From the IMG/VR virus record IMGVR_UViG_3300042505_001173, positions 83,619 to 147,618 of that record: a stretch of DNA of 64,000 bases; one strand, given 5' to 3'. The position numbers and the translations under genes are program-made. Source of the DNA: a virus. Under the pieces are notes generated by a model. It was given only the letters and a program-made list of their open reading frames with translations. It was not told the DNA's origin and made no database searches. Below, piece by piece: positions 355 to 40,388 of the stretch (the first letter of the stretch is position 1; the number at the start of each line of letters is the position of its first letter).

Positions 355-1839
355 CTAAAAACTGATACTTTCGTATCTTGGAGAGTTAACAACCTCCATC
401 ATCATACCTTCAGGTGATAAAATCTCATCTTGCTCACCTGTTATATACTTCAAGATATTTGGACTAAAACCTGAAATCATACAGGTATTAGGAGTATTAT
501 GTACTACTGGAAAATTGCCAGAGTTAGCATTAACATTCCAGAATACTAACTTAGGAATTGTATATCCAGCAATTTCAAATGACGATCTAATTGTTTCATA
601 GAACGTTTCAACCGCTGAAGCTTTAATTTGACTACGAGTAATAGCATTAAATTCCATATCAGAAATGATATAAATTGTTCCAACCATATCACTAGGTGAC
701 AACTGATTAGTAATAGCTGCTTGTAGAATTAATTTAAACACTGCTTCAAGGTCTGTTGACATACCCCATTCAGCGTGTGAAAGATTATGAACCTTTTCAA
801 AGATATTATTACCTTTTAAATCTTGAATTCTTGGGGTTTCACTAAACGTAATGAATTTGTCACGATATGGACCTTTTGCTCGTTCAGCAAAATAAATTGC
901 TAACGATATACAAACTTCCATTGGAAGACCTGACATTGAACCACTAACATCAGCTACAACGATAGCGTTACTATCAACATCAATTTTTGGTAAGTTTTTC
1001 CATAAAATTTCTGCTTCATCTGGTTTAATGTCACTTGTCCAATTGTTTAAAATTTTACCAACGATTTGATATGGATATAAAGTACTAGCGTTAACATGAA
1101 CTTTCCCGTCTTTAGCTAATGTAATAAATTCTTCATAACGGGTAGCATCATTTCTTGCAAATGCTTTGCGATGTTTTAGTAAACATTGACTTGGTAACTT
1201 AGAATAAGTAATGGTATCCCATTGTTTAGCACTCATACGATTTTCAGCAACTTCAAGATATCTGTTCAAATTTGAACATAATTTACGATAATCTTTTGAT
1301 GATAGCCCAAAAGCTTTACGCGTTAAATTACCTAATCGGACTGATTCTTTACTTGAAGTATTGATACGTTTTAACCATTTACCTAAAATTGAAATAGGTT
1401 GATTTGATGTGATACCCTCAAGATCTCTACGTGATTGATCTTTCATTAAACTAAAAGCATATGATTCACAAGGTGTACCGACAACTGAATAAAGATCATC
1501 CCATCTTCCGTATTCAGCAACGAGGTCTAATAGGTTTTTTGTTTGATCTGGGTAGTTACGAGCAAGCCATTCTAATTGAATACGAAATGGTCTTCTTTGA
1601 CCTTGACCACCACGAATATCTCTAAACATGTACATTAACCGTACAGCAATTGTCTTTTCTTGTGCAAATGCACGTGTAAACAAACTTAAAATTTCACTTT
1701 CGGTTCTTGATCTAATTGATCCACCTTGAGCAAAGAAATCAACACAATTGTTTAAAGATGAATGGTTAGTAATAGCACCGTTTTGTGTTGTTGAATGATT
1801 CATTTGATTTGAAATCGCTGATAAGAATTTTTCGGTCAT
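355..1839 (-). CDS. vWA-domain protein, DUF2828-like (494 aa)
   Basis: The C-terminal half holds a von Willebrand A fold with a canonical MIDAS metal site, DVSGSMSG, preceded by the YPYQIVGKIL element typical of DUF2828-type proteins of viruses, plants and bacteria. The N-terminal half is basic and probably helical, reminiscent of the HEAT-like part of Ro60/TROVE proteins (inference). The role in phages is unknown; RNA binding or protein assembly are guesses. The frame could start at 1911, but the ATG at 1839 (protein MTEKFLSAIS) has a GGAG Shine-Dalgarno seven bases upstream while the earlier ATG has none, so I chose 1839. It ends at a strong terminator and lies downstream of the stem-loop RNA array. 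Confidence 0.8.
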   Translation of the reverse strand: MTEKFLSAISNQMNHSTTQNGAITNHSSLNNCVDFFAQGGSIRSRTESEILSLFTRAFAQEKTIAVRLMYMFRDIRGGQGQRRPFRIQLEWLARNYPDQTKNLLDLVAEYGRWDDLYSVVGTPCESYAFSLMKDQSRRDLEGITSNQPISILGKWLKRINTSSKESVRLGNLTRKAFGLSSKDYRKLCSNLNRYLEVAENRMSAKQWDTITYSKLPSQCLLKHRKAFARNDATRYEEFITLAKDGKVHVNASTLYPYQIVGKILNNWTSDIKPDEAEILWKNLPKIDVDSNAIVVADVSGSMSGLPMEVCISLAIYFAERAKGPYRDKFITFSETPRIQDLKGNNIFEKVHNLSHAEWGMSTDLEAVFKLILQAAITNQLSPSDMVGTIYIISDMEFNAITRSQIKASAVETFYETIRSSFEIAGYTIPKLVFWNVNANSGNFPVVHNTPNTCMISGFSPNILKYITGEQDEILSPEGMMMEVVNSPRYESISF

Positions 1840-1963
1840 TTTGTACTCCAAGACATTAATTGTTAAATTGCGGATACTGTCTTTATAACTAGATGCATAA
1901 GTCATTTTCAATAATGAGTTGTTTAATTGCTGGAAGCATCTATAAGTGTTTAGGTTTTACCCT

Positions 1964-2005: not shown

Positions 2006-2580
2006 TGTTCCAACCAATACACCTCTAAGTCTGTCAGGACTTAGTTTATTTCATGGAGACTATTTTTAATCGCTGTATGTGCGGTTATTGGAACACCCAA
2101 TTTTTAAAAATATAGACCTGTTTTTAGCAACCCACATTCATTCCAATAAGATTAGATATGTAATTGCTGTAAGTGAGTTTTATAACAGGTCTACATCTGT
2201 ACATCAATATGAGGTTTTTCACGATGATCGATCACTTATTGTGACCATCAAACGTTTAACCTCTCTGCATTAAAATTATATGCTGTACTACACCTACTTG
2301 GAGGTGCCATCTTAAACCAAGATGGAGCAAGATCTTATTAACATTTTCGATTATTGCTGTTAAGATCTTTGATAAAAGAGCGGTCACGATCTAAATTTAA
2401 CATTTGCAGTGTTTATAAAATTGCTGTTGAGATCGTTGATTTTACTAATAACTTTCAAGACCTTATTCACGTTTTCGAGTATGAGTCGATTATTGTTGCA
2501 GTTAAGGTCTTACGTAAACTAGATTCTGTTTATGTGTTCAGATTAGAGGTCTGATATTAAATGGTTGCTGTTCGAATCTA
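2006..2580 (-). ncRNA. Tandem array of structured RNA modules with a repeated ACAGCAA motif
   Basis: A stretch of about 790 bases without a credible gene is packed with inverted repeats. Outer stems (plus-strand coordinates): 2520-2526/2574-2580, 2457-2465/2503-2511, 2386-2392/2430-2436, 2329-2337/2361-2369, 2113-2122/2184-2193 and 2006-2013/2088-2095. Compact hairpins lie at 2307-2325 and 2291-2306. Read on the minus strand, soon after the 5' stem arm most modules carry (A)ACAGCAA or a close variant (plus-strand positions 2565, 2496, 2421, 2354, 2280, 2164, 2070). Stems differ between modules but stay paired, for example AAGATCTTA/TAAGATCTT against AAGACCTTA/TAAGGTCTT, which implies selection on RNA structure. 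The same signature flanks the permuted tRNA at 10571-10684. Function unknown. Confidence 0.7.
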
Positions 2581-9817: not shown

Positions 9818-10462
9818 TTAACAATTCCATTTTTTTAATGCTAAAGCTTTACGTGTAGGTTTACCATGTTTGTCTTTCATTGGTCCTTTAACACCGCTCA
9901 TTCTAGCACAAAAGCTTTTACGTCTTTTATAAGCTTTACTATCTTTCTTTAATTTACTTGGTTTGGTTGTTACAGCTGTCTGCAATTTACTACCAGGATG
10001 TTCTTTACGGTAGCTTGCTACACCTTTTGCGTTTAAACCACCGTTTTTATTTTTACCTTCTTTACGAGTCCATGCAGCAGCTTCAAAAAGCTCATCATCA
10101 CTTACAGACTCAAAATCATCCCAAATAACATCGCTATCAACACCATGATGAATAGCTAAATTATCTACCATAGTTTCAATCATATCAAACATTTCATGAA
10201 CAGATGGGTTAATACCACGTTGTTCTTGACTTTGCAAATAATCCCAAACTGATACAAGAATATACTCAGCTTTAGCTATTTTTTCTTGAACCCATTCAGG
10301 TAAATTCTCATTTTTTTCAATTGTCTTCATTAGACCCGATGCAGCACGGGCAATCGTGAGTAGATGACCGTGAGCAGTGCCTGCTTCATCATTATACTCA
10401 GAATTCATATTTTCGTTAGCAACCGTGCTAACACGAGTGGTTAATATATCATTTACTTTCAT
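9818..10462 (-). CDS. DUF6321-like protein with helical N-terminus (214 aa)
   Basis: The C-terminal 85 residues form a compact basic domain beginning AWTRKEGKNKNGGLNAKG, with SFCARMSG and ending KKWNC, which I recognise as the DUF6321-type domain common in large marine phages. The conserved Lys, Arg, Trp and Cys suggest nucleic-acid or metal binding, but its function is not established. The N-terminal 125 residues are acidic and helical and appear to be a separate domain. A GGAGA ribosome binding site precedes the ATG and a late promoter lies 26 bases upstream, so it may be a virion-associated protein. Confidence 0.75.
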   Translation of the reverse strand: MKVNDILTTRVSTVANENMNSEYNDEAGTAHGHLLTIARAASGLMKTIEKNENLPEWVQEKIAKAEYILVSVWDYLQSQEQRGINPSVHEMFDMIETMVDNLAIHHGVDSDVIWDDFESVSDDELFEAAAWTRKEGKNKNGGLNAKGVASYRKEHPGSKLQTAVTTKPSKLKKDSKAYKRRKSFCARMSGVKGPMKDKHGKPTRKALALKKWNC

Positions 10463-10526: not shown

Positions 10527-10566
10527 AAAAAAAAGACTTAACTGAAAAAACAGTAAGTCTTTTTTA
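10527..10566 (-). terminator. Intrinsic terminator of the permuted tRNA unit
   Basis: AAAAGACTTAACTG (10531-10544) pairs with CAGTAAGTCTTTT (10551-10563) with one bulge. On the minus strand the stem is followed by eight T residues. It lies five bases beyond the outer stem of the permuted tRNA-like element and so closes a discrete transcription unit of about 160 nt. Confidence 0.85.
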
Positions 10567-10570
10567 ATAC

Positions 10571-10684
10571 AAGATTCATTTTAATTTCAATTATTCTACC
10601 AACTGAACTACATAACCTTTCGGTTATGGTGGGAATCGAACCCACGACACATTGATTCCGATTATATATTGCTGTTAGAATCTT
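10571..10684 (-). tRNA. Circularly permuted tRNA-like gene, predicted anticodon CGG
   Basis: Minus-strand order: outer stem AAGATTC (10684-10678); a leader with ACAGCAA; anticodon-stem 3' arm TCAAT (10655-10651); variable loop GTGTC; T-arm GTGGG-TTCGATT-CCCAC (10645-10629); acceptor 3' arm CATAACC (10628-10622); GAAA; acceptor 5' arm GGTTATG (10617-10611); TA; D-arm GTTC-AGTTGGTA-GAAT (10608-10593); anticodon-stem 5' arm ATTGA (10591-10587); tail; outer stem GAATCTT (10577-10571). Acceptor (7 bp), T (5 bp), D (4 bp with one G-U) and anticodon (5 bp) stems all pair. Joining 10617-10587 to 10662-10622 gives 72 nt plus G73 and the loop AUCGGAA with canonical U33, that is anticodon CGG. CCA is not encoded. 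The alternative is a remnant of two tandem tRNAs, but a promoter and terminator bracket it exactly. Confidence 0.8.
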
Positions 10685-10697
10685 AACTTCAAATACA

Positions 10698-10726
10698 ATT
10701 ATAATATGTTATATAGTATTGATCAA
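10698..10726 (-). promoter_or_regulatory. Sigma70-like promoter for the permuted tRNA
   Basis: Minus-strand TTGATC (10721-10726), a 17-bp spacer, and perfect TATAAT (10698-10703). The predicted start near 10690 is about six bases before the outer stem of the element. The layout copies that of the promoter at 2589-2617. Confidence 0.75.
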
Positions 10727-10810: not shown

Positions 10811-12010
10811 TTAATAATTAATTTCAATTAACGGAAATAGCAATCTAAATGCTGTACCGTGGTTTGATTCAGCTGTATTTGAGTCGACGATAATATGACC
10901 ATTAGCGTCATGTACCATACCGCTAACGGTTGACAATCCTAAGCCTGTACCTTCACCAATAGGTTTTGTAGTAAAAAATGGATCAAAAATATGATCAATT
11001 ACAGTTTGATCAATACCTGTACCAGTATCTAGAACACGTAATTCAATATAATCATTTGAAATAATATGTTGAGCACACGATGTACAAATTTGATTATGAA
11101 TATTGACTTGTTTTAATGAAACTACAATAGTACCACCATTTTTCATGGAATCACGAGCATTAATAATCAAATTAGTTAAAATTTGATGTAAATCAATAGC
11201 ATCTATTTGAATATCAAGATAGTTGTCGACATTTGTTTCAAGGTGAAACCTACTAGTTAATGCTGGACCTACCATTGATGCAACATCGTATATTACTTCT
11301 TGTGTTGGTCGTATTTCTATATCTTTATCAGCTGAGTTTTGACGTGAATAAGCTAGCATTTTACTAATCAAGCTAGATGCGCGTTTACTAGCAACGTTAA
11401 CTGCGTTTACATTGTATATAAAGTCAGCTTTGCGTTGTTCATCCGGACAATCTTCTGCTAATAATAAGTTGAGTTCGTTGTAACCTAATATACAGTTTAA
11501 AATATTATTAAAATCGTGTGCTATACCTGCTGTTAACCGACTAAGGCTTTCGATTTTTTGCATCTGGTTAACTTGTTTGTTTAATAATAGTAAAGCGGCT
11601 TTATTTTTTTCACGCTCAGTAATATCTTTAAACACACCCATATAGCCAATTATATTACCGTCATCGTCATTAATTGTAGATGGTCTAACAGATACTTGAT
11701 GTTTACCTAACGTCATTGTAAACTCTTGACAGCTTGATAATTTTTTGATTAGTTCTTTTTGATTGTTAGTATTTTTATGAAACATAACAATATTAACGCC
11801 AATCATTTTATTAACGTTAAAAGATGGGAATTTTTTTTGAATCTCTGATTCTGCAGCAGTAAAAATTTTTACTGCGCTATCATTATAATAAACAACGTTG
11901 CGATCTGCATCTGTAATAACAACAGCATCGTTTAATGAATTTAAACCTTTTGTTAGACGAAAATTACATAGACTGAGATTTTCATTGGGTGTAGCTGTTA
12001 TTGTTGGCAT
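10811..12010 (-). CDS. PAS-domain sensor histidine kinase (399 aa)
   Basis: A complete soluble histidine kinase. Residues about 20-130 form a PAS domain (DAVVITDADRNVVYYN, then GYMGVFKDITERE). A short coiled linker leads to the HisKA box LTAGIAHDFNNIL with phosphoacceptor His165. The ATPase domain shows the N box (NLIINARDSM), G1 (DTGTGI), F box (DPFFTTKP) and G2 (GEGTGLGLS). No membrane segment, signal peptide or receiver domain is present, so it should sense a cytoplasmic cue and pass phosphate to a separate regulator, perhaps a host one. No response regulator lies in this window. AAGGA precedes the ATG. Confidence 0.92.
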   Translation of the reverse strand: MPTITATPNENLSLCNFRLTKGLNSLNDAVVITDADRNVVYYNDSAVKIFTAAESEIQKKFPSFNVNKMIGVNIVMFHKNTNNQKELIKKLSSCQEFTMTLGKHQVSVRPSTINDDDGNIIGYMGVFKDITEREKNKAALLLLNKQVNQMQKIESLSRLTAGIAHDFNNILNCILGYNELNLLLAEDCPDEQRKADFIYNVNAVNVASKRASSLISKMLAYSRQNSADKDIEIRPTQEVIYDVASMVGPALTSRFHLETNVDNYLDIQIDAIDLHQILTNLIINARDSMKNGGTIVVSLKQVNIHNQICTSCAQHIISNDYIELRVLDTGTGIDQTVIDHIFDPFFTTKPIGEGTGLGLSTVSGMVHDANGHIIVDSNTAESNHGTAFRLLFPLIEINY

Positions 12011-13044: not shown

Positions 13045-13118
13045 TGGAAGGCCTGAGAGGAATTGAACCCCTACTAAATCCGTCAAAGGGACTTGTGCAA
13101 CCACTACACCACAGGCCA
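13045..13118 (-). tRNA. tRNA-Gln (anticodon UUG)
   Basis: A full cloverleaf with encoded CCA: acceptor TGGCCTG/CAGGCCT with a weak U1-U72 pair (a hallmark of tRNA-Gln), D-arm GTGT-AGTGGTT-GCAC, anticodon stem AGTCC/GGATT with loop CTTTGAC (anticodon TTG), and T-arm AGGGG-TTCAATT-CCTCT. Length 74 nt. It lies directly upstream of the parvulin gene on the same strand. Confidence 0.95.
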
Positions 13119-13132
13119 ATAATATTGATTAA

Positions 13133-13312
13133 TTATAATGCATCTTCTTCATTATAATCAACAGGTAATTCACGTTTTTTGTGTTTATGCATTCTTGATT
13201 CCGAACAATAAGCACATGCCCCATGGTTGCGACATGTACGATCAAATGCTTTTGCATTATAAAAAGACTTACGATGATCTTTTCTGTTTGGATAATTTTT
13301 ATCGAATGACAT
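13133..13312 (-). CDS. Small Cys/His basic protein between tRNA genes (59 aa)
   Basis: A short basic protein beginning MSFDKNYPNRKDHRKSFYN with CRNHGACAYCSES, giving three Cys and a His in close array, likely a one-ion zinc site. Similar small proteins (MSFDKN.PNRKD.R, then a C..HG.C.YC cluster) occur in large T4-like phages, but their function is unknown to me. The frame is open up to 13345, but that would run into the tRNA-Pro gene. I chose the ATG at 13312 because conservation begins there; 13324 is the other option. Confidence 0.7.
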   Translation of the reverse strand: MSFDKNYPNRKDHRKSFYNAKAFDRTCRNHGACAYCSESRMHKHKKRELPVDYNEEDAL

Positions 13313-13334
13313 AATAATTACCATATAACGTGTA

Positions 13335-13411
13335 TGGTCTCTCATATTCGGTTCGAACGAATGGCCTCACCGTCCCAAGCGGTGCGCTCTACCAGACTGA
13401 GCTAATGAGAG
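13335..13411 (-). tRNA. tRNA-Pro (anticodon UGG)
   Basis: A full cloverleaf with encoded CCA: acceptor CTCTCAT/ATGAGAG (7 bp), D-arm GCTC-AGTCTGGTA-GAGC, anticodon stem CACCG/CGGTG with loop CTTGGGA (anticodon TGG), T-arm ATTCG-TTCGAAC-CGAAT, A73 and CCA. Length 77 nt. Confidence 0.95.
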
Positions 13412-13417
13412 AATAAC

Positions 13418-13493
13418 TGATCAGAGTGGAGAGAATCAAACTCCCTTAACTAGTGGATTTAAGACTAGCGATCAACCAATGAAACACACTCTA
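13418..13493 (-). tRNA. Atypical tRNA-like gene with a 9-nt anticodon loop
   Basis: The acceptor TAGAGTG pairs with CACTCTG (U1-G72 wobble) followed by ATCA. The T-arm is GGGAG-TTTGATT-CTCTC, and anticodon stem CTAGT/ACTAG encloses a nine-base loop CTTAAATCC. The D-loop keeps GG, but the D-stem TTTC/GATC forms only two pairs. The variable loop is short (TTAA). If U33 is the first T, the anticodon reads TAA (Leu UUA codon). It lies six bases upstream of tRNA-Pro, probably in one transcript. It may be functional but unusual, or decaying. Confidence 0.55.
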
Positions 13494-36621: not shown

Positions 36622-36813
36622 ATGAAAGAAGAATATATTACTATTACTGGATCAAACCAAAAATTTAAATTATTATCAAAGACAGCTATACCTTTTCATA
36701 AAGTACAATTAGTTGTAGAAGACAGTGAAGGTGTACGGTTTGTTTTTACGAGACAAGCAGGCTGCTATATAAGAACAACAAAACCGGTAAATGATTACAC
36801 AGAGGAATCATGA
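36622..36813 (+). CDS. Small hypothetical protein before the DNA polymerase (63 aa)
   Basis: I do not recognise this protein. The sequence alternates hydrophobic and charged residues (YITITGSNQKFKLLSK, VQLVVEDSEGVRFVF), suggesting a small beta-barrel. It has a good AAGGAATG ribosome binding region, and its stop overlaps the polymerase start (ATGA), so it is translationally coupled to the polymerase N-gene. Confidence 0.65.
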   Translation: MKEEYITITGSNQKFKLLSKTAIPFHKVQLVVEDSEGVRFVFTRQAGCYIRTTKPVNDYTEES

Positions 36814-39428
36814 CATATATTAGCGCAATTATGAAACGTAACGATAACGGTTTCGTTACAGGTGATGATGTTTTAGTATGGGAATGCGTGGATGGGAAAA
36901 ACGTATTAAAAACATACCCAGGTATTTTTAAATTTTATGTTAAAAAAGAAGATGGTCCATATAAAAGTGTATTTGGCGATTCTCTCGAAAAATATGAATT
37001 TGATACATTCCAAGAATTTAGACAAGCAAAAAAATACCTGTTGCAAGAGAAAAAACTCAAATTATATGAATCAGATATTTCACCAGATACAAAAGTTTTA
37101 TCAGCTCACTATTATGAGAAGCCATCTCCAAAACTAAATGTACTACTGTACGATATTGAGGTTGATTACTCCACGTTGTCATATGGAAGTGATTATATAG
37201 CTAAAGCTCGAATGGTAGGTAAGGATAAGGAAATTGATACACCATTACATGAAATACGTAACCTTTCACCTAAACAACAATTATCAATTGAAGTTTATGA
37301 TCCTAAAAATAAAAAATGGCAACCATACCCATATTCAAAATTAGCTTATGAAGGTCCTGTAGGGTTCAGTAGTCCTCAAAACCCTTATGCACCAATTAAC
37401 GCAATATCAATTTATAAACAATGGCTTGATAAGTCTATTGTTATGGCAGTACCACCTCCAGGGTTCGATCTTAAAACAGTTGATCACTCGTTACATGAAT
37501 TAACCGAAATTAGATTCTATAAAAATGAAAAAGAATTATTACTCGCATACTTAGATGAGATTGAAGAAGCTAGTGTGCTATCAGGATGGAATAGTGGTGG
37601 CTTTGATGACCCGTATGTAGCGAAACGAGTTGAAATAGTCCTTGGAAATCATCATTTTAAACGGTTAAGTTTCGAAGGTGCAAACGTACCATTATATCGT
37701 GAATTATTCGTTAAAGGCGCTAAGCAATTACGTGTTGATTATAGTGGTCGTATTCAACTAGATTATCTTGAGTTATTTAAGAAATTTGAAGGTGGTGAAC
37801 GAGCTAGTTTCCGATTAGAAGCTGTTGCTGAAGATCATTTACCACATCTTAAAAAGTTAACATACCCGGGTACATTAGAACAGTTATATAGTAATGATTT
37901 TAATCATTTCTTACGATACAATATCCGTGATACAGAAATCCTAAAAGGTTTTGAAAATAAGCTAACGTATATCCAGTTAGCGAATGATATGATTCATTCT
38001 AGTACAAACCAGTTTAATCATATATTTGGTACTGTACGTATGGTTGATAATGCAATCGTTAATTATTGCCATTATGAGATTGACCGTATTGTACCTGATA
38101 GATGGGATACAAAAGATGGTAAAATTCAAGGAGCTTATGTATTATTTCCTCAAAGAGGATTACATAAGTGGATTTGCTCCATTGATATTAATTCTCTATA
38201 TCCATCAGCAATTCGGTCTATTAATATTAGTCCAGAAACTGTTATTGGTCAGTTTGAAAATAATATTAAAGATTGGAATAAAATATTTGAAGGTATCGAA
38301 GATGATATCACTATTAGGTACGATGACGGTTCATTTGAAACTAAGAAAACACAAGAATGGGTTGATTATTTTGCAGAACAATGTTGGGCTGTTAGTGGTT
38401 ACGGTACAGTATTTACACAAAAAGAATTAGGTATTATTCCATCGTTGTTAGCCAAATGGTATTCTCAACGAAAAGTATATCAAGCTGAAATGAGAAAATA
38501 TGTTAAAGAGGCAGAAGCTTTAAAATATGATTTCTCAACAGGTACAGCTGTTGAACGTAAAGATTATGATAAAGATCTTTATTTTGAGTTAACAGAAAAA
38601 GGTAAGTATTACAACCGGTTACAGTATATTTTCAAGATTAAACTGAACTCAACTTACGGTTGTTTAAGTAACTATAATTTTAGATTCTTCAGATTAGAAT
38701 TAGGTGAATCGACAACAGGTACCAGTAGACAAATTCTTAGACATCAATGTAGATATACAAACTATGTAATCGATGGTGAATACAATATAGATTTTCCAAT
38801 TTACGAGAGTATGGCTATTATTGATAACATCAATAAAGAGAACGCTAAGCGGTTAGCTGAAGAAGCTGAGAGTGAATTTGAATTTGAAGAAGTGGACGCA
38901 GTACATAATGATAGTTTGTCACTAGCTCAGTTAGTTGACTATGAACGTCAAGAATATTATCATGCTAATACAGTAACGCATGAAATGGCATTAGATGGTC
39001 CTGTATTCAAAGGTAAGTTTTCATCGCAGGTAGTAGTGTATGGCGATACAGATAGTGTTTTTTACCAGTCTCTGGTTGACATCGACGGAGAAGAAAAAAC
39101 CATTGAAGACCATTTTAACAATTTAAAGGAAAATGATGATACAATGCTGTTACATTATCCTGATAATGTCGAATATTTGTTATTAAACGGTAACTATGAA
39201 TCCCCATGCATAGCTGAAAAAGAATGGGAATATAAACCAGTAAAAGCAATATACAGACATAAAACCAAAAAACGCATGTATAGAGTTACAACATCTTCTG
39301 GTAAAATGGTAATTGTGACAGGTGATCACAGCATGATGCGTGTGAATGACAATAATGAGTTAGAATCGTTAAAAACTACTGATTTACAAATCGGCGATAA
39401 AGTAATTGAATTAAATAATAAACTCTAA
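36810..39428 (+). CDS. gp43: DNA polymerase family B, N-part fused to N-intein (872 aa)
   Basis: The replicative polymerase N-part. Exonuclease motifs: ExoI YDIEV (Asp115, Glu117), ExoII SGWNSGGFDDPY, ExoIII YNIRDTEIL. Polymerase motifs: A as DINSLYPS (Asp459) and B as KLNSTYG (Lys611, Asn613, Tyr616). The extein ends within motif C at YGDTD (744-748). Residues 749-872 are an N-intein: Ser749 opens block A (SVFYQSLVDIDG) and block B is VIVTGDHSMM with the Thr-x-x-His signature; there is no endonuclease domain. The gene stops there and the partner starts 18 bases on. The joined extein would be 1017 residues (748 plus 269), against 898 for T4 gp43. Without splicing the active site lacks its C-terminal half. 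Confidence 0.95.
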   Translation: MTYISAIMKRNDNGFVTGDDVLVWECVDGKNVLKTYPGIFKFYVKKEDGPYKSVFGDSLEKYEFDTFQEFRQAKKYLLQEKKLKLYESDISPDTKVLSAHYYEKPSPKLNVLLYDIEVDYSTLSYGSDYIAKARMVGKDKEIDTPLHEIRNLSPKQQLSIEVYDPKNKKWQPYPYSKLAYEGPVGFSSPQNPYAPINAISIYKQWLDKSIVMAVPPPGFDLKTVDHSLHELTEIRFYKNEKELLLAYLDEIEEASVLSGWNSGGFDDPYVAKRVEIVLGNHHFKRLSFEGANVPLYRELFVKGAKQLRVDYSGRIQLDYLELFKKFEGGERASFRLEAVAEDHLPHLKKLTYPGTLEQLYSNDFNHFLRYNIRDTEILKGFENKLTYIQLANDMIHSSTNQFNHIFGTVRMVDNAIVNYCHYEIDRIVPDRWDTKDGKIQGAYVLFPQRGLHKWICSIDINSLYPSAIRSINISPETVIGQFENNIKDWNKIFEGIEDDITIRYDDGSFETKKTQEWVDYFAEQCWAVSGYGTVFTQKELGIIPSLLAKWYSQRKVYQAEMRKYVKEAEALKYDFSTGTAVERKDYDKDLYFELTEKGKYYNRLQYIFKIKLNSTYGCLSNYNFRFFRLELGESTTGTSRQILRHQCRYTNYVIDGEYNIDFPIYESMAIIDNINKENAKRLAEEAESEFEFEEVDAVHNDSLSLAQLVDYERQEYYHANTVTHEMALDGPVFKGKFSSQVVVYGDTDSVFYQSLVDIDGEEKTIEDHFNNLKENDDTMLLHYPDNVEYLLLNGNYESPCIAEKEWEYKPVKAIYRHKTKKRMYRVTTSSGKMVIVTGDHSMMRVNDNNELESLKTTDLQIGDKVIELNNKL
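39054..39425 (+). other. Split intein, N-terminal half (124 aa)
   Basis: It runs from Ser749 of the polymerase N-gene to its last codon. Block A and block B are clear; blocks C, D, E and H of the homing endonuclease are missing. The first residue Ser and insertion after YGDTD match the PolB motif-C insertion site used by archaeal inteins that begin Ser-Val. Confidence 0.9.
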
Positions 39429-39446: not shown

Positions 39447-39578
39447 ATGAGTGATTTAAAAATTGAAACTGTTGTTTCTATTGAAGACTTAGGGTATGTC
39501 GACGATTGGGTATACGACCTTACAATGGAAGATACAAATATTCCATATTTTTTTGGTAATGGTATATTAGTACATAAC
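39447..39578 (+). other. Split intein, C-terminal half (44 aa)
   Basis: The first 44 residues of the second polymerase gene. Block F is VYDLTMEDTNIPYFFGNG and block G is GILVHN, with the penultimate His43 and terminal Asn44 needed for Asn cyclisation. The +1 extein residue is Ser45. The length is close to the C-halves of natural split inteins such as cyanobacterial DnaE. Confidence 0.9.
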
Positions 39579-40388
39579 AGTACATATTTCACAGTACCAG
39601 CAGATACGAAAGAACAAGCAATTAAATTTGCTGATGCAGTTGCTGAAGCAGTAAACGACTCATATCCAGAATTTATGAGAAAGGCATTTAGATGTCAACC
39701 AGGGTATGATTTGCAAGTTAAATGTGGACGTGAAGTTGTAAGTGACCATGGGCTATTTGTTGAGAAAAAACGATATATCTTACATGTTGTTGACAATGAA
39801 GGTGAAACTGTTGACAAAATGAAGATTATGGGTCTAGATATCAAAAAGACAACATTACCTAAAATAATATCAGCACAGTTAACAGAATTCATTAAACGTT
39901 TATTACGAGGTGAAGAGTGGAATGATATTGCAACAGATATTGTAAACTATAAAGAAGAACTAATGAAGTTCGATAATTTATTAGAAGTAGGTTTACCAAA
40001 AAACGTTAATAATGTTGAAAAATATGATATGTCGTATAAGATCGATGGTGAGAAAGCGAGACTTCCAGGTAACGTTGCTGCAGCGTTACATTTCAATATC
40101 AGATTAAAAGAAAACGATGATAATGATACAGAATTAATAACATCAGGTACAAAAATTAAAGTTTATTACTTAAAAAACAAGATGTTAAACAAATTTACTT
40201 CAATAGCATTACCATCTGATATAGAACACATTCCAGAATGGTTTATGGAGCAGTATGTACCATTAATCGATAAAGATAAGCAATTATCGAGGTTAGTAGA
40301 CAATCCATTACAGAACATACTTAAAGCTATCAATGTAAATGTACCAACAGCACAATCAGTGCATGCACAAGAACTGTTTAATTTTTAG
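39447..40388 (+). CDS. gp43: C-intein fused to DNA polymerase family B C-part (313 aa)
   Basis: After the 44-residue C-intein, the extein begins STYFTVPADT, so splicing restores YGDTD|STYF, a standard family B motif C. The remaining 269 residues are palm end and thumb, with the KKRY element (VEKKRYILHV) and a C-terminal QELFNF resembling the clamp-binding tail of T4 gp43. It has its own ATG and a CAGGA ribosome binding site in the 18-base gap, so it is an independent cistron and not a frameshift product. The clamp gene follows nine bases later. Confidence 0.95.
   Translation: MSDLKIETVVSIEDLGYVDDWVYDLTMEDTNIPYFFGNGILVHNSTYFTVPADTKEQAIKFADAVAEAVNDSYPEFMRKAFRCQPGYDLQVKCGREVVSDHGLFVEKKRYILHVVDNEGETVDKMKIMGLDIKKTTLPKIISAQLTEFIKRLLRGEEWNDIATDIVNYKEELMKFDNLLEVGLPKNVNNVEKYDMSYKIDGEKARLPGNVAAALHFNIRLKENDDNDTELITSGTKIKVYYLKNKMLNKFTSIALPSDIEHIPEWFMEQYVPLIDKDKQLSRLVDNPLQNILKAINVNVPTAQSVHAQELFNF

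What the first reader, a model, noticed from the sequence alone, without database searches (positions are those of the whole stretch)
10527..10726. Circularly permuted tRNA gene in a phage, with its own promoter and terminator
Seen: T-arm and acceptor 3' strand come first, then GAAA, then acceptor 5' strand and D-arm. The 7-bp acceptor, 5-bp T, 4-bp D and 5-bp anticodon stems all form across the permutation. The rejoined body is 73 nt with a 5-nt variable loop and anticodon loop AUCGGAA with U33. An outer 7-bp stem brings the RNA ends together at the anticodon loop. TTGATC-N17-TATAAT starts just before the outer stem, and a hairpin with T8 ends just after it. Known: permuted tRNAs occur in some red and green algae and in an archaeon, processed by a tRNA splicing endonuclease that bacteria lack. 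Inference: the phage would need cleavage at the anticodon and another end for ligation, perhaps a self-cleaving RNA or a phage RNA nuclease/ligase.
Basis: partly seen in the sequence, partly recalled or inferred. Interest (0 to 1): 0.93.

Follow-up and report, generated by a model that had tools for sequence, protein, structure and literature searches.

The report
Phage tRNA-mimic RNA for Ro-like protein
What looks like a tRNA gene with its halves swapped is most likely one of a large family of small phage RNAs that imitate tRNAs, or just their anticodon arms, and that are encoded next to a phage relative of the RNA-binding protein Ro60; it is probably not a tRNA in need of exotic splicing.

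Summary
The structure is real. On the minus strand, window 10571-10684, a tRNA body lies in permuted order inside a 7-bp outer stem. A covariance model built from 34 other such genes, window excluded, finds it at 69.7 bits (E 4.7e-14).

It is not a lone oddity. Pattern scans gave about 270 relatives in unrelated phages, permuted or in normal tRNA order, sharing the 7-bp stem followed by NN-ACAGCAA. A third form carries only an anticodon arm; a cluster of these lies at window ~1890-2580.

Rfam's bacterial Y RNA family YrlA matches the element (41 bits, below its cut-off) with the same order of arms. The only non-housekeeping protein family found in all four phages compared is window ORF 355-1911 (DUF2828/DUF7788). 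Its model's only significant PDB matches are Ro60/TROVE proteins. Element loci carry this gene in 49% of cases versus 10% without an element, always on the same strand, mostly directly downstream. Starting instead from the protein, 7-8 of 9 isolated phages had elements.

Where the insert interrupts the anticodon loop, rejoining restores U33 only at chance (18/37), against maturation to a tRNA. Best reading: a Y-RNA-like tRNA mimic bound by a phage Ro-like protein. Anti-anticodon-nuclease decoy function is inferred.

The parts
10571..10684 (-). Y-RNA-like tRNA-mimic element (the reported 'permuted tRNA')
   Evidence: held-out covariance model R1: 69.7 bits, E 4.7e-14; Rfam YrlA 41.2 bits, E 3e-08, below its cut-off of 69
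10678..10684 (-). outer stem, 5' strand AAGAUUC (presumed Ro-binding stem)
   Evidence: pairs perfectly with 10571-10577; such 7-bp stems occur in 122 of 144 permuted relatives versus 12.6+-3 by chance
10669..10675 (-). conserved ACAGCAA, two nt after the outer stem
   Evidence: shared by all forms; for closed anticodon-arm elements 101 with ACAGCAA versus 0-1 for control motifs
10651..10655 (-). anticodon-stem 3' strand UCAAU (nt 39-43); the preceding AUCGGAA is internal-loop sequence in the unprocessed RNA
10629..10645 (-). T-arm GUGGG-UUCGAUU-CCCAC
10611..10628 (-). acceptor stem CAUAACC / GGUUAUG closed by GAAA (7 bp)
   Evidence: 98% paired with compensatory changes across 34 relatives (members were selected for this stem)
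10593..10608 (-). D-arm GUUC-AGUUGGUA-GAAU
10587..10591 (-). anticodon-stem 5' strand AUUGA (nt 27-31)
   Evidence: pairs with 10651-10655
10571..10577 (-). outer stem, 3' strand GAAUCUU, preceded by A-rich AAUUAAAAU
10529..10565 (-). terminator-like hairpin, followed by a T run to 10527
   Evidence: -14.3 kcal/mol, z -5.5
10698..10726 (-). promoter-like TTGATC-N17-TATAAT
   Evidence: 10 of 12 consensus matches; number of such sites in the region not above shuffles
2520..2580 (-). anticodon-arm-only element (TAGATTC..ACAGCAA..UCAGA-CCUCUAA-UCUGA..GAATCTA)
   Evidence: held-out model R2 27.6 bits, E 1.1e-4
2457..2511 (-). anticodon-arm-only element with variant motif ACTGCAA and a CUCAUAC loop
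   Evidence: 7-bp outer stem and anticodon-like arm
2386..2436 (-). anticodon-arm-only element with a CUGCAAA (GCA) loop
   Evidence: R2 26.8 bits, E 1.8e-4
2329..2369 (-). closed ACAGCAA element, short interior
   Evidence: R2 21.9 bits, E 0.0035
2129..2179 (-). closed ACAGCAA element
   Evidence: R2 19.7 bits, E 0.013
1890..1942 (-). possible further element overlapping the Ro-like start codon (CCAGCAA variant)
   Evidence: R2 22.6 bits, E 0.0022
355..1911 (-). Ro60-like protein gene (DUF2828 + DUF7788/vWA, 518 aa)
   Evidence: Pfam 1.8e-31 and 5e-54; AlphaFold model pLDDT 85; only PDB matches with E<0.001 are TROVE/Ro60 9kop and 9l5y

Best explanation
The element is a Y-RNA-like noncoding RNA that mimics a tRNA. 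It is probably transcribed as its own short unit and works in permuted form, without splicing. The 7-bp outer stem with ACAGCAA is the part recognised by the phage's Ro60-like protein (window 355-1911). The enclosed module is held out for a partner that normally handles tRNAs; here it has the T-arm, acceptor arm, D-arm and the anticodon stem. Sister RNAs in the same phage display only anticodon arms. Inferred, not shown: the likeliest job of such particles is to occupy tRNA-directed enzymes, above all host anticodon nucleases, or to serve tRNA quality control or repair during infection. Shown: structure, covariation, family, genomic association and protein fold. Inferred: binding, expression, function.
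For: Rfam YrlA aligns over its whole length with identical order T-arm, loop-closed acceptor, D-arm, closing helix. Two blastp families are shared by this phage, Vibrio phage MS02, Pseudoalteromonas phage J2-1 and Erwinia phage pEa_SNUABM_47: this Ro-like protein and a protein that is DHFR in this phage. Fold match to Ro60/TROVE only. Of loci fetched by RNA pattern alone, 131 of 267 with an element carry the Ro-like gene versus 11 of 108 without; element and gene on the same strand in 131 of 131; in 102 the nearest element is upstream, mostly within 400 nt. PF11443 in most records with elements and in none of 6 without; one phage has TROVE instead, with three elements upstream of it. Reverse test: 9 isolated phages chosen by protein; 7-8 have elements near the gene, all on its strand. 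Anticodon-arm-only elements argue against tRNA maturation. U33 at chance where the loop is interrupted. Published: YrlA pairs its ends into a large stem and mimics D, T and acceptor arms (PMC8394870); its tRNA-like domain may competitively inhibit an anticodon nuclease (PMC7790460).
Against: No expression or binding data. YrlA score is below Rfam's cut-off (41 versus 69 bits) and the Ro-side stem differs from YrlA's. About a quarter to a third of the records with elements examined showed neither DUF2828 nor TROVE, though records may be fragments. Here the RNA lies 8.7 kb from the Ro-like gene, not next to it. About half the relatives are normal-order tRNAs with the hairpin inserted, some with encoded CCA, which classical Y RNAs do not explain. 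Relatives of the adjacent ORF 9818-10462 lack any tRNA nearby, so conservation at this site could not be shown.
Confidence: 0.82

Rival explanations
1. A true circularly permuted tRNA gene: the transcript is cut at two places in the anticodon arm and ligated into a circle, then RNase P and 3' trimming open it at the GAAA linker to give tRNA-Pro(CGG).
For: All tRNA stems form and the rejoined body is called tRNA-Pro(CGG) by ARAGORN. In relatives with the insert between nt 28/29 or 29/30, rejoining gives canonical arms with many anticodons. CCG is used 267 times in this phage's larger ORFs.
Against: In those relatives the anticodon arm is already intact before any joining, so canonical loops need no splicing; where the loop is interrupted, U33 is at chance, 18/37. 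Anticodon-arm-only members cannot give tRNAs. No ligase found here or in MS02. The rejoined tRNA would have A32, A37 and G1-C72, unlike the phage's own tRNA-Pro with C1-G72 and G37.
Confidence: 0.08
2. The stem plus ACAGCAA unit is a new small tRNA intron class (about 40-60 nt), present in normal and permuted order, excised with help of the Ro-like protein.
For: Normal-order tRNAs with the hairpin inserted in the anticodon arm rejoin to good tRNAs; 73% versus 48% pairing in a fixed N7-N4-N7-NN-ACAGCAA geometry; dedicated protein partner.
Against: Same U33 test and anticodon-arm-only elements as above; no nuclease or ligase consistently associated; the Ro60 fold is an RNA-binding ring, not a nuclease (general knowledge).
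Confidence: 0.06
3. A decaying tandem tRNA pair left by deletion, without function.
For: The 4-nt linker equals the spacing of directly abutting tRNAs; permuted genes can arise by tandem duplication (general knowledge).
Against: Held-out model E 4.7e-14, outer stem with compensatory change across 34 relatives, conserved ACAGCAA and Ro-like gene association.
Confidence: 0.01

Closest known systems
YrlA, bacterial Y-RNA-like RNA A (Rfam RF02553; Salmonella rsr-yrlBA-rtcBA operon)
   Same: 5' and 3' ends pair into a basal stem bound by a Ro60-fold protein; tRNA-like domain with T-, acceptor (closed by a loop) and D-arm in the same permuted order.
   Different: Score below Rfam cut-off; basal stem is 7 bp followed by NN-ACAGCAA; partner is a DUF2828/DUF7788 protein rather than TROVE; many relatives add a complete anticodon arm, are inserted in normal-order tRNAs, or carry only an anticodon arm.
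Ro60 of Thermus phage phiLo (PDB 9l5y) and 'Ro-like RNA binding protein' of mycobacteriophages
   Same: Phage-encoded Ro60-fold protein; window ORF 355-1911 matches it by fold and 682 GenBank phages by sequence, some annotated Ro-like.
   Different: phiLo's protein is TROVE-type with only 15-17% identity over the fold; the DUF2828 type forms its own Pfam families.
Circularly permuted tRNA genes of red and green algae and an archaeon
   Same: tRNA 3' half precedes 5' half with a short linker at the acceptor ends.
   Different: Those mature to tRNA through a splicing endonuclease and ligase; here the interrupted-loop family does not restore canonical loops.
tmRNA / other tRNA mimics
   Same: RNA that borrows the tRNA fold for another purpose.
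   Different: No mRNA-like part or tag; Rfam tmRNA match is only an 18-nt T-arm stretch.

Membership tests
YrlA (RF02553) / bacterial Y RNA | Covariance-model score at or above the curated cut-off | tested here: not met
   41.2 bits versus 69; not reported at gathering threshold
YrlA (RF02553) / bacterial Y RNA | Ends paired into a basal stem; tRNA-like D, T and acceptor arms in permuted order | tested here: met
   description in PMC8394870
YrlA (RF02553) / bacterial Y RNA | Encoded with a Ro60-fold protein | tested here: met
   same genome and strand, 8.7 kb apart; family-wide adjacency
YrlA (RF02553) / bacterial Y RNA | Bound by the Ro60-fold protein; binds an effector such as PNPase | not testable with these tools
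   needs biochemistry
Circularly permuted tRNA gene | 3' half before 5' half with complete tRNA pairing | tested here: met
Circularly permuted tRNA gene | Rejoined anticodon loop canonical across the family | tested here: not met
   interrupted-loop members: U33 available in 18 of 37, chance level
Circularly permuted tRNA gene | Mature tRNA and circular intermediate in cells | not testable with these tools
   needs RNA-seq of infected cells
Circularly permuted tRNA gene | Splicing endonuclease or ligase available | tested here: inconclusive
   no PF09511, PF09414 or PF01139 in the phage record; host enzymes unknown, record may be incomplete
Ro60 / TROVE protein (window 355-1911) | Ro60 fold (helical-repeat ring plus vWA domain) | tested here: met
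   model pLDDT 85, Foldseek 1e-6 to 9kop and 5.7e-6 to 9l5y over about 520 columns
Ro60 / TROVE protein (window 355-1911) | Pfam TROVE match (PF05731) | tested here: not met
   not among the hits of window 355-1911; profile hits TROVE chains only at E 0.89

The most novel reading that the evidence does not exclude
The ACAGCAA hairpin is a new class of small RNA-splicing element: normal-order members are spliced tRNAs, permuted members are circularised tRNAs, and anticodon-arm members give tiny circular RNAs, with a Ro-like protein as the splicing platform in bacteria-infecting viruses.
Probability: 0.07. Interest if true: 0.95.

Novelty: new variant of a known kind. Interest (0 to 1): 0.6.

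Why it matters
Bacterial Y RNAs that mimic tRNAs are known, and Ro-like proteins are annotated in some phages. Here a second Ro60-type protein family (DUF2828/DUF7788), found in 682 of 50,697 GenBank phage records, is linked to a very large set of RNAs that display whole tRNAs or single anticodon arms with diverse anticodons (Lys UUU the commonest among the arm-only form). Standard annotation tools miss or misread these genes. If they are decoys for anticodon nucleases, this would be a widespread counter-defence that can be tested in laboratory phages with deletion mutants. It also warns that a 'permuted tRNA' in a bacterium or phage may be a Y RNA.

Tried and rejected
Exact-sequence search for the same gene in IMG/VR: none. 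Relatives of the adjacent histidine kinase: none. Relatives of the downstream ORF: 26, none with a nearby tRNA or element. Group I intron or other known ribozyme: no Rfam match. RtcB as splicing ligase: 4 of 49 carriers. Rnl2-type ligase: 32 of 49, but absent here and in MS02 and with likely DNA-ligase cross-hits. A first covariance alignment (A1) misaligned the 3' stem and was replaced by one with trimmed linkers (A2). The key papers on bacterial Y RNAs (Chen 2014, Wang 2018, Sim 2018/2020) are not held, so how far they already describe anticodon-arm-bearing or DUF2828-linked phage Y RNAs could not be checked.

Full report
OBSERVATION. Neither ARAGORN nor Rfam's tRNA model finds it in genomic order; rejoined by hand it is called tRNA-Pro(CGG). 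The terminator-like hairpin is strong (z -5.5). The promoter hexamers are no more frequent than in shuffles.

RELATIVES. A blastn search against phages hit unannotated intergenic spots in Pseudoalteromonas phage J2-1, Vibrio phage MS02 and Erwinia phage pEa_SNUABM_47, all with the same permuted layout and a shared ACAGCAA just after the outer stem. MS02 also holds a normal-order tRNA whose anticodon arm is interrupted by a hairpin with the same motif. Three IMG/VR scans and one genome scan gave about 270 candidates in the viral loci alone, half permuted and half normal-order. Partner-shuffled controls support the stem: 122 of 144 permuted elements have a perfect 7-bp outer stem versus 12.6+-3; normal-order hairpins in a fixed N7-N4-N7-NN-ACAGCAA geometry pair in 73% of cells versus 48%. 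In the 34-sequence alignment all helices covary (members had been selected for outer and acceptor stems). The model built from it, window excluded, finds the window element at 69.7 bits, E 4.7e-14.

A THIRD FORM. The same model pointed to window ~2100-2640, where several units have the outer stem and ACAGCAA but enclose only an anticodon-like arm. Across the loci 101 strong cases exist, against 0 or 1 for each of eight control motifs of the same composition; Lys UUU is the commonest anticodon. A model of these (all helices covary) finds five units in the window, all at 1890-2580 just upstream of, or at the start of, ORF 355-1911, and others in MS02 and J2-1.

WHAT IT IS. A permissive Rfam scan matches the element to YrlA, the bacterial Y-RNA-like tRNA mimic, over the full model with the same order of arms (41.2 bits, E 3e-08; cut-off 69). 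Of all ORFs, two blastp families are shared by the four phages compared; the member in this phage is dihydrofolate reductase for one, and for the other ORF 355-1911, a DUF2828/DUF7788 protein with a vWA domain. Its AlphaFold model (pLDDT 85) matches only TROVE/Ro60 structures significantly, including Ro60 of Thermus phage phiLo. The gene accompanies the RNA: 131 of 267 element loci versus 11 of 108 others, same strand in 131 of 131, the nearest element upstream in 102 and mostly within 400 nt. Whole-record searches agree, and one phage with a classical TROVE gene has three elements directly upstream of it. Reverse test: nine phages chosen by protein similarity only have elements near the gene in seven clear cases and one weak one, always on the gene's strand, including Listeria phage P100, Campylobacter phage CPX, E. 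coli phage EC6, mycobacteriophage Faith1 and Bacillus phage FADO.

WHY NOT SPLICING. If the insert were removed to make tRNAs, members whose anticodon loop is interrupted should rejoin to canonical loops. They do not: U33 is available from either side in 18 of 37, whereas members whose loop is intact in the unprocessed RNA show U33 in 83 of 88 and a purine at 37 in 88 of 88. Anticodon-arm-only members cannot become tRNAs. No ligase was found in this phage or, for the families searched, in MS02. For members with an intact arm the sequence data alone cannot exclude splicing.

MECHANISM. Shown: structure, covariation, conserved motif, genomic association, Ro60 fold. Inferred: the outer stem plus ACAGCAA is the Ro-side; the tRNA or anticodon-arm module is the bait. 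Published YrlA work describes the same division of labour (PMC8394870) and suggests that its tRNA-like domain could competitively inhibit an anticodon nuclease (PMC7790460); Ro/TROVE proteins in jumbo phages have been described as a platform for RNA repair with a tRNA-like partner (PMC7824862). Decoy or repair platform in tRNA-targeting conflicts is therefore the leading idea, perhaps 40% for decoy as such. I do not file the RNA as a YrlA member, because it fails the curated score and its Ro-side differs; it works like one.

NOVELTY. Tool-held literature shows nothing on bacterial or phage permuted tRNA genes or on DUF2828, but the main Y RNA papers are not held. From memory, Chen et al. 2014 report Y RNAs near Ro60 in many bacterial and some phage genomes. 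What appears new is the DUF2828-type partner, the ACAGCAA Ro-side, complete anticodon arms with varied anticodons, arm-only members and in-line members.

Noticed in passing
window 36810-39428 and 39447-40388 (+): The family-B DNA polymerase appears split over two ORFs whose facing ends look like the N- and C-terminal parts of an intein (...VTGDHSMMRV... and ...FFGNGILVHN|STYF), i.e. a possible split intein. Judged by eye from the translation.
   Followed up: no
L007 (Synechococcus phage S-CRM01) 1461-1576: A strong permuted tRNA-like element (R1 56.8 bits) without ACAGCAA and in a genome without DUF2828 or TROVE: a variant with another partner, or none.
   Followed up: partly
relatives with interrupted loops: They keep loop-like residues at nt 37-38 but not U33, so the interruption lies about where many anticodon nucleases cut; possible mimicry of a cleaved tRNA.
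   Followed up: no
normal-order relatives, e.g. L080, L236, L367: Apparently complete tRNA genes, some with encoded CCA, carrying the 7-bp hairpin plus ACAGCAA in the anticodon stem; annotation pipelines call them odd tRNAs or miss them.
   Followed up: partly
Genome-contig loci L296-L375: Many such tRNAs on Lachnospiraceae, Clostridia, Treponema and Brachyspira contigs; whether these are prophages or chromosomal was not settled.
   Followed up: no
window 13045-13493 (-): Two ordinary tRNAs (Gln, Pro) and a third at 13421-13493 scoring exactly at Rfam's cut-off (29 bits) without CCA, possibly degenerate.
   Followed up: no
window 10811-12010 (-): ORF that looks like a sensor histidine kinase directly upstream of the element, with no relative found among viral contigs; unusual phage cargo.
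   Followed up: partly
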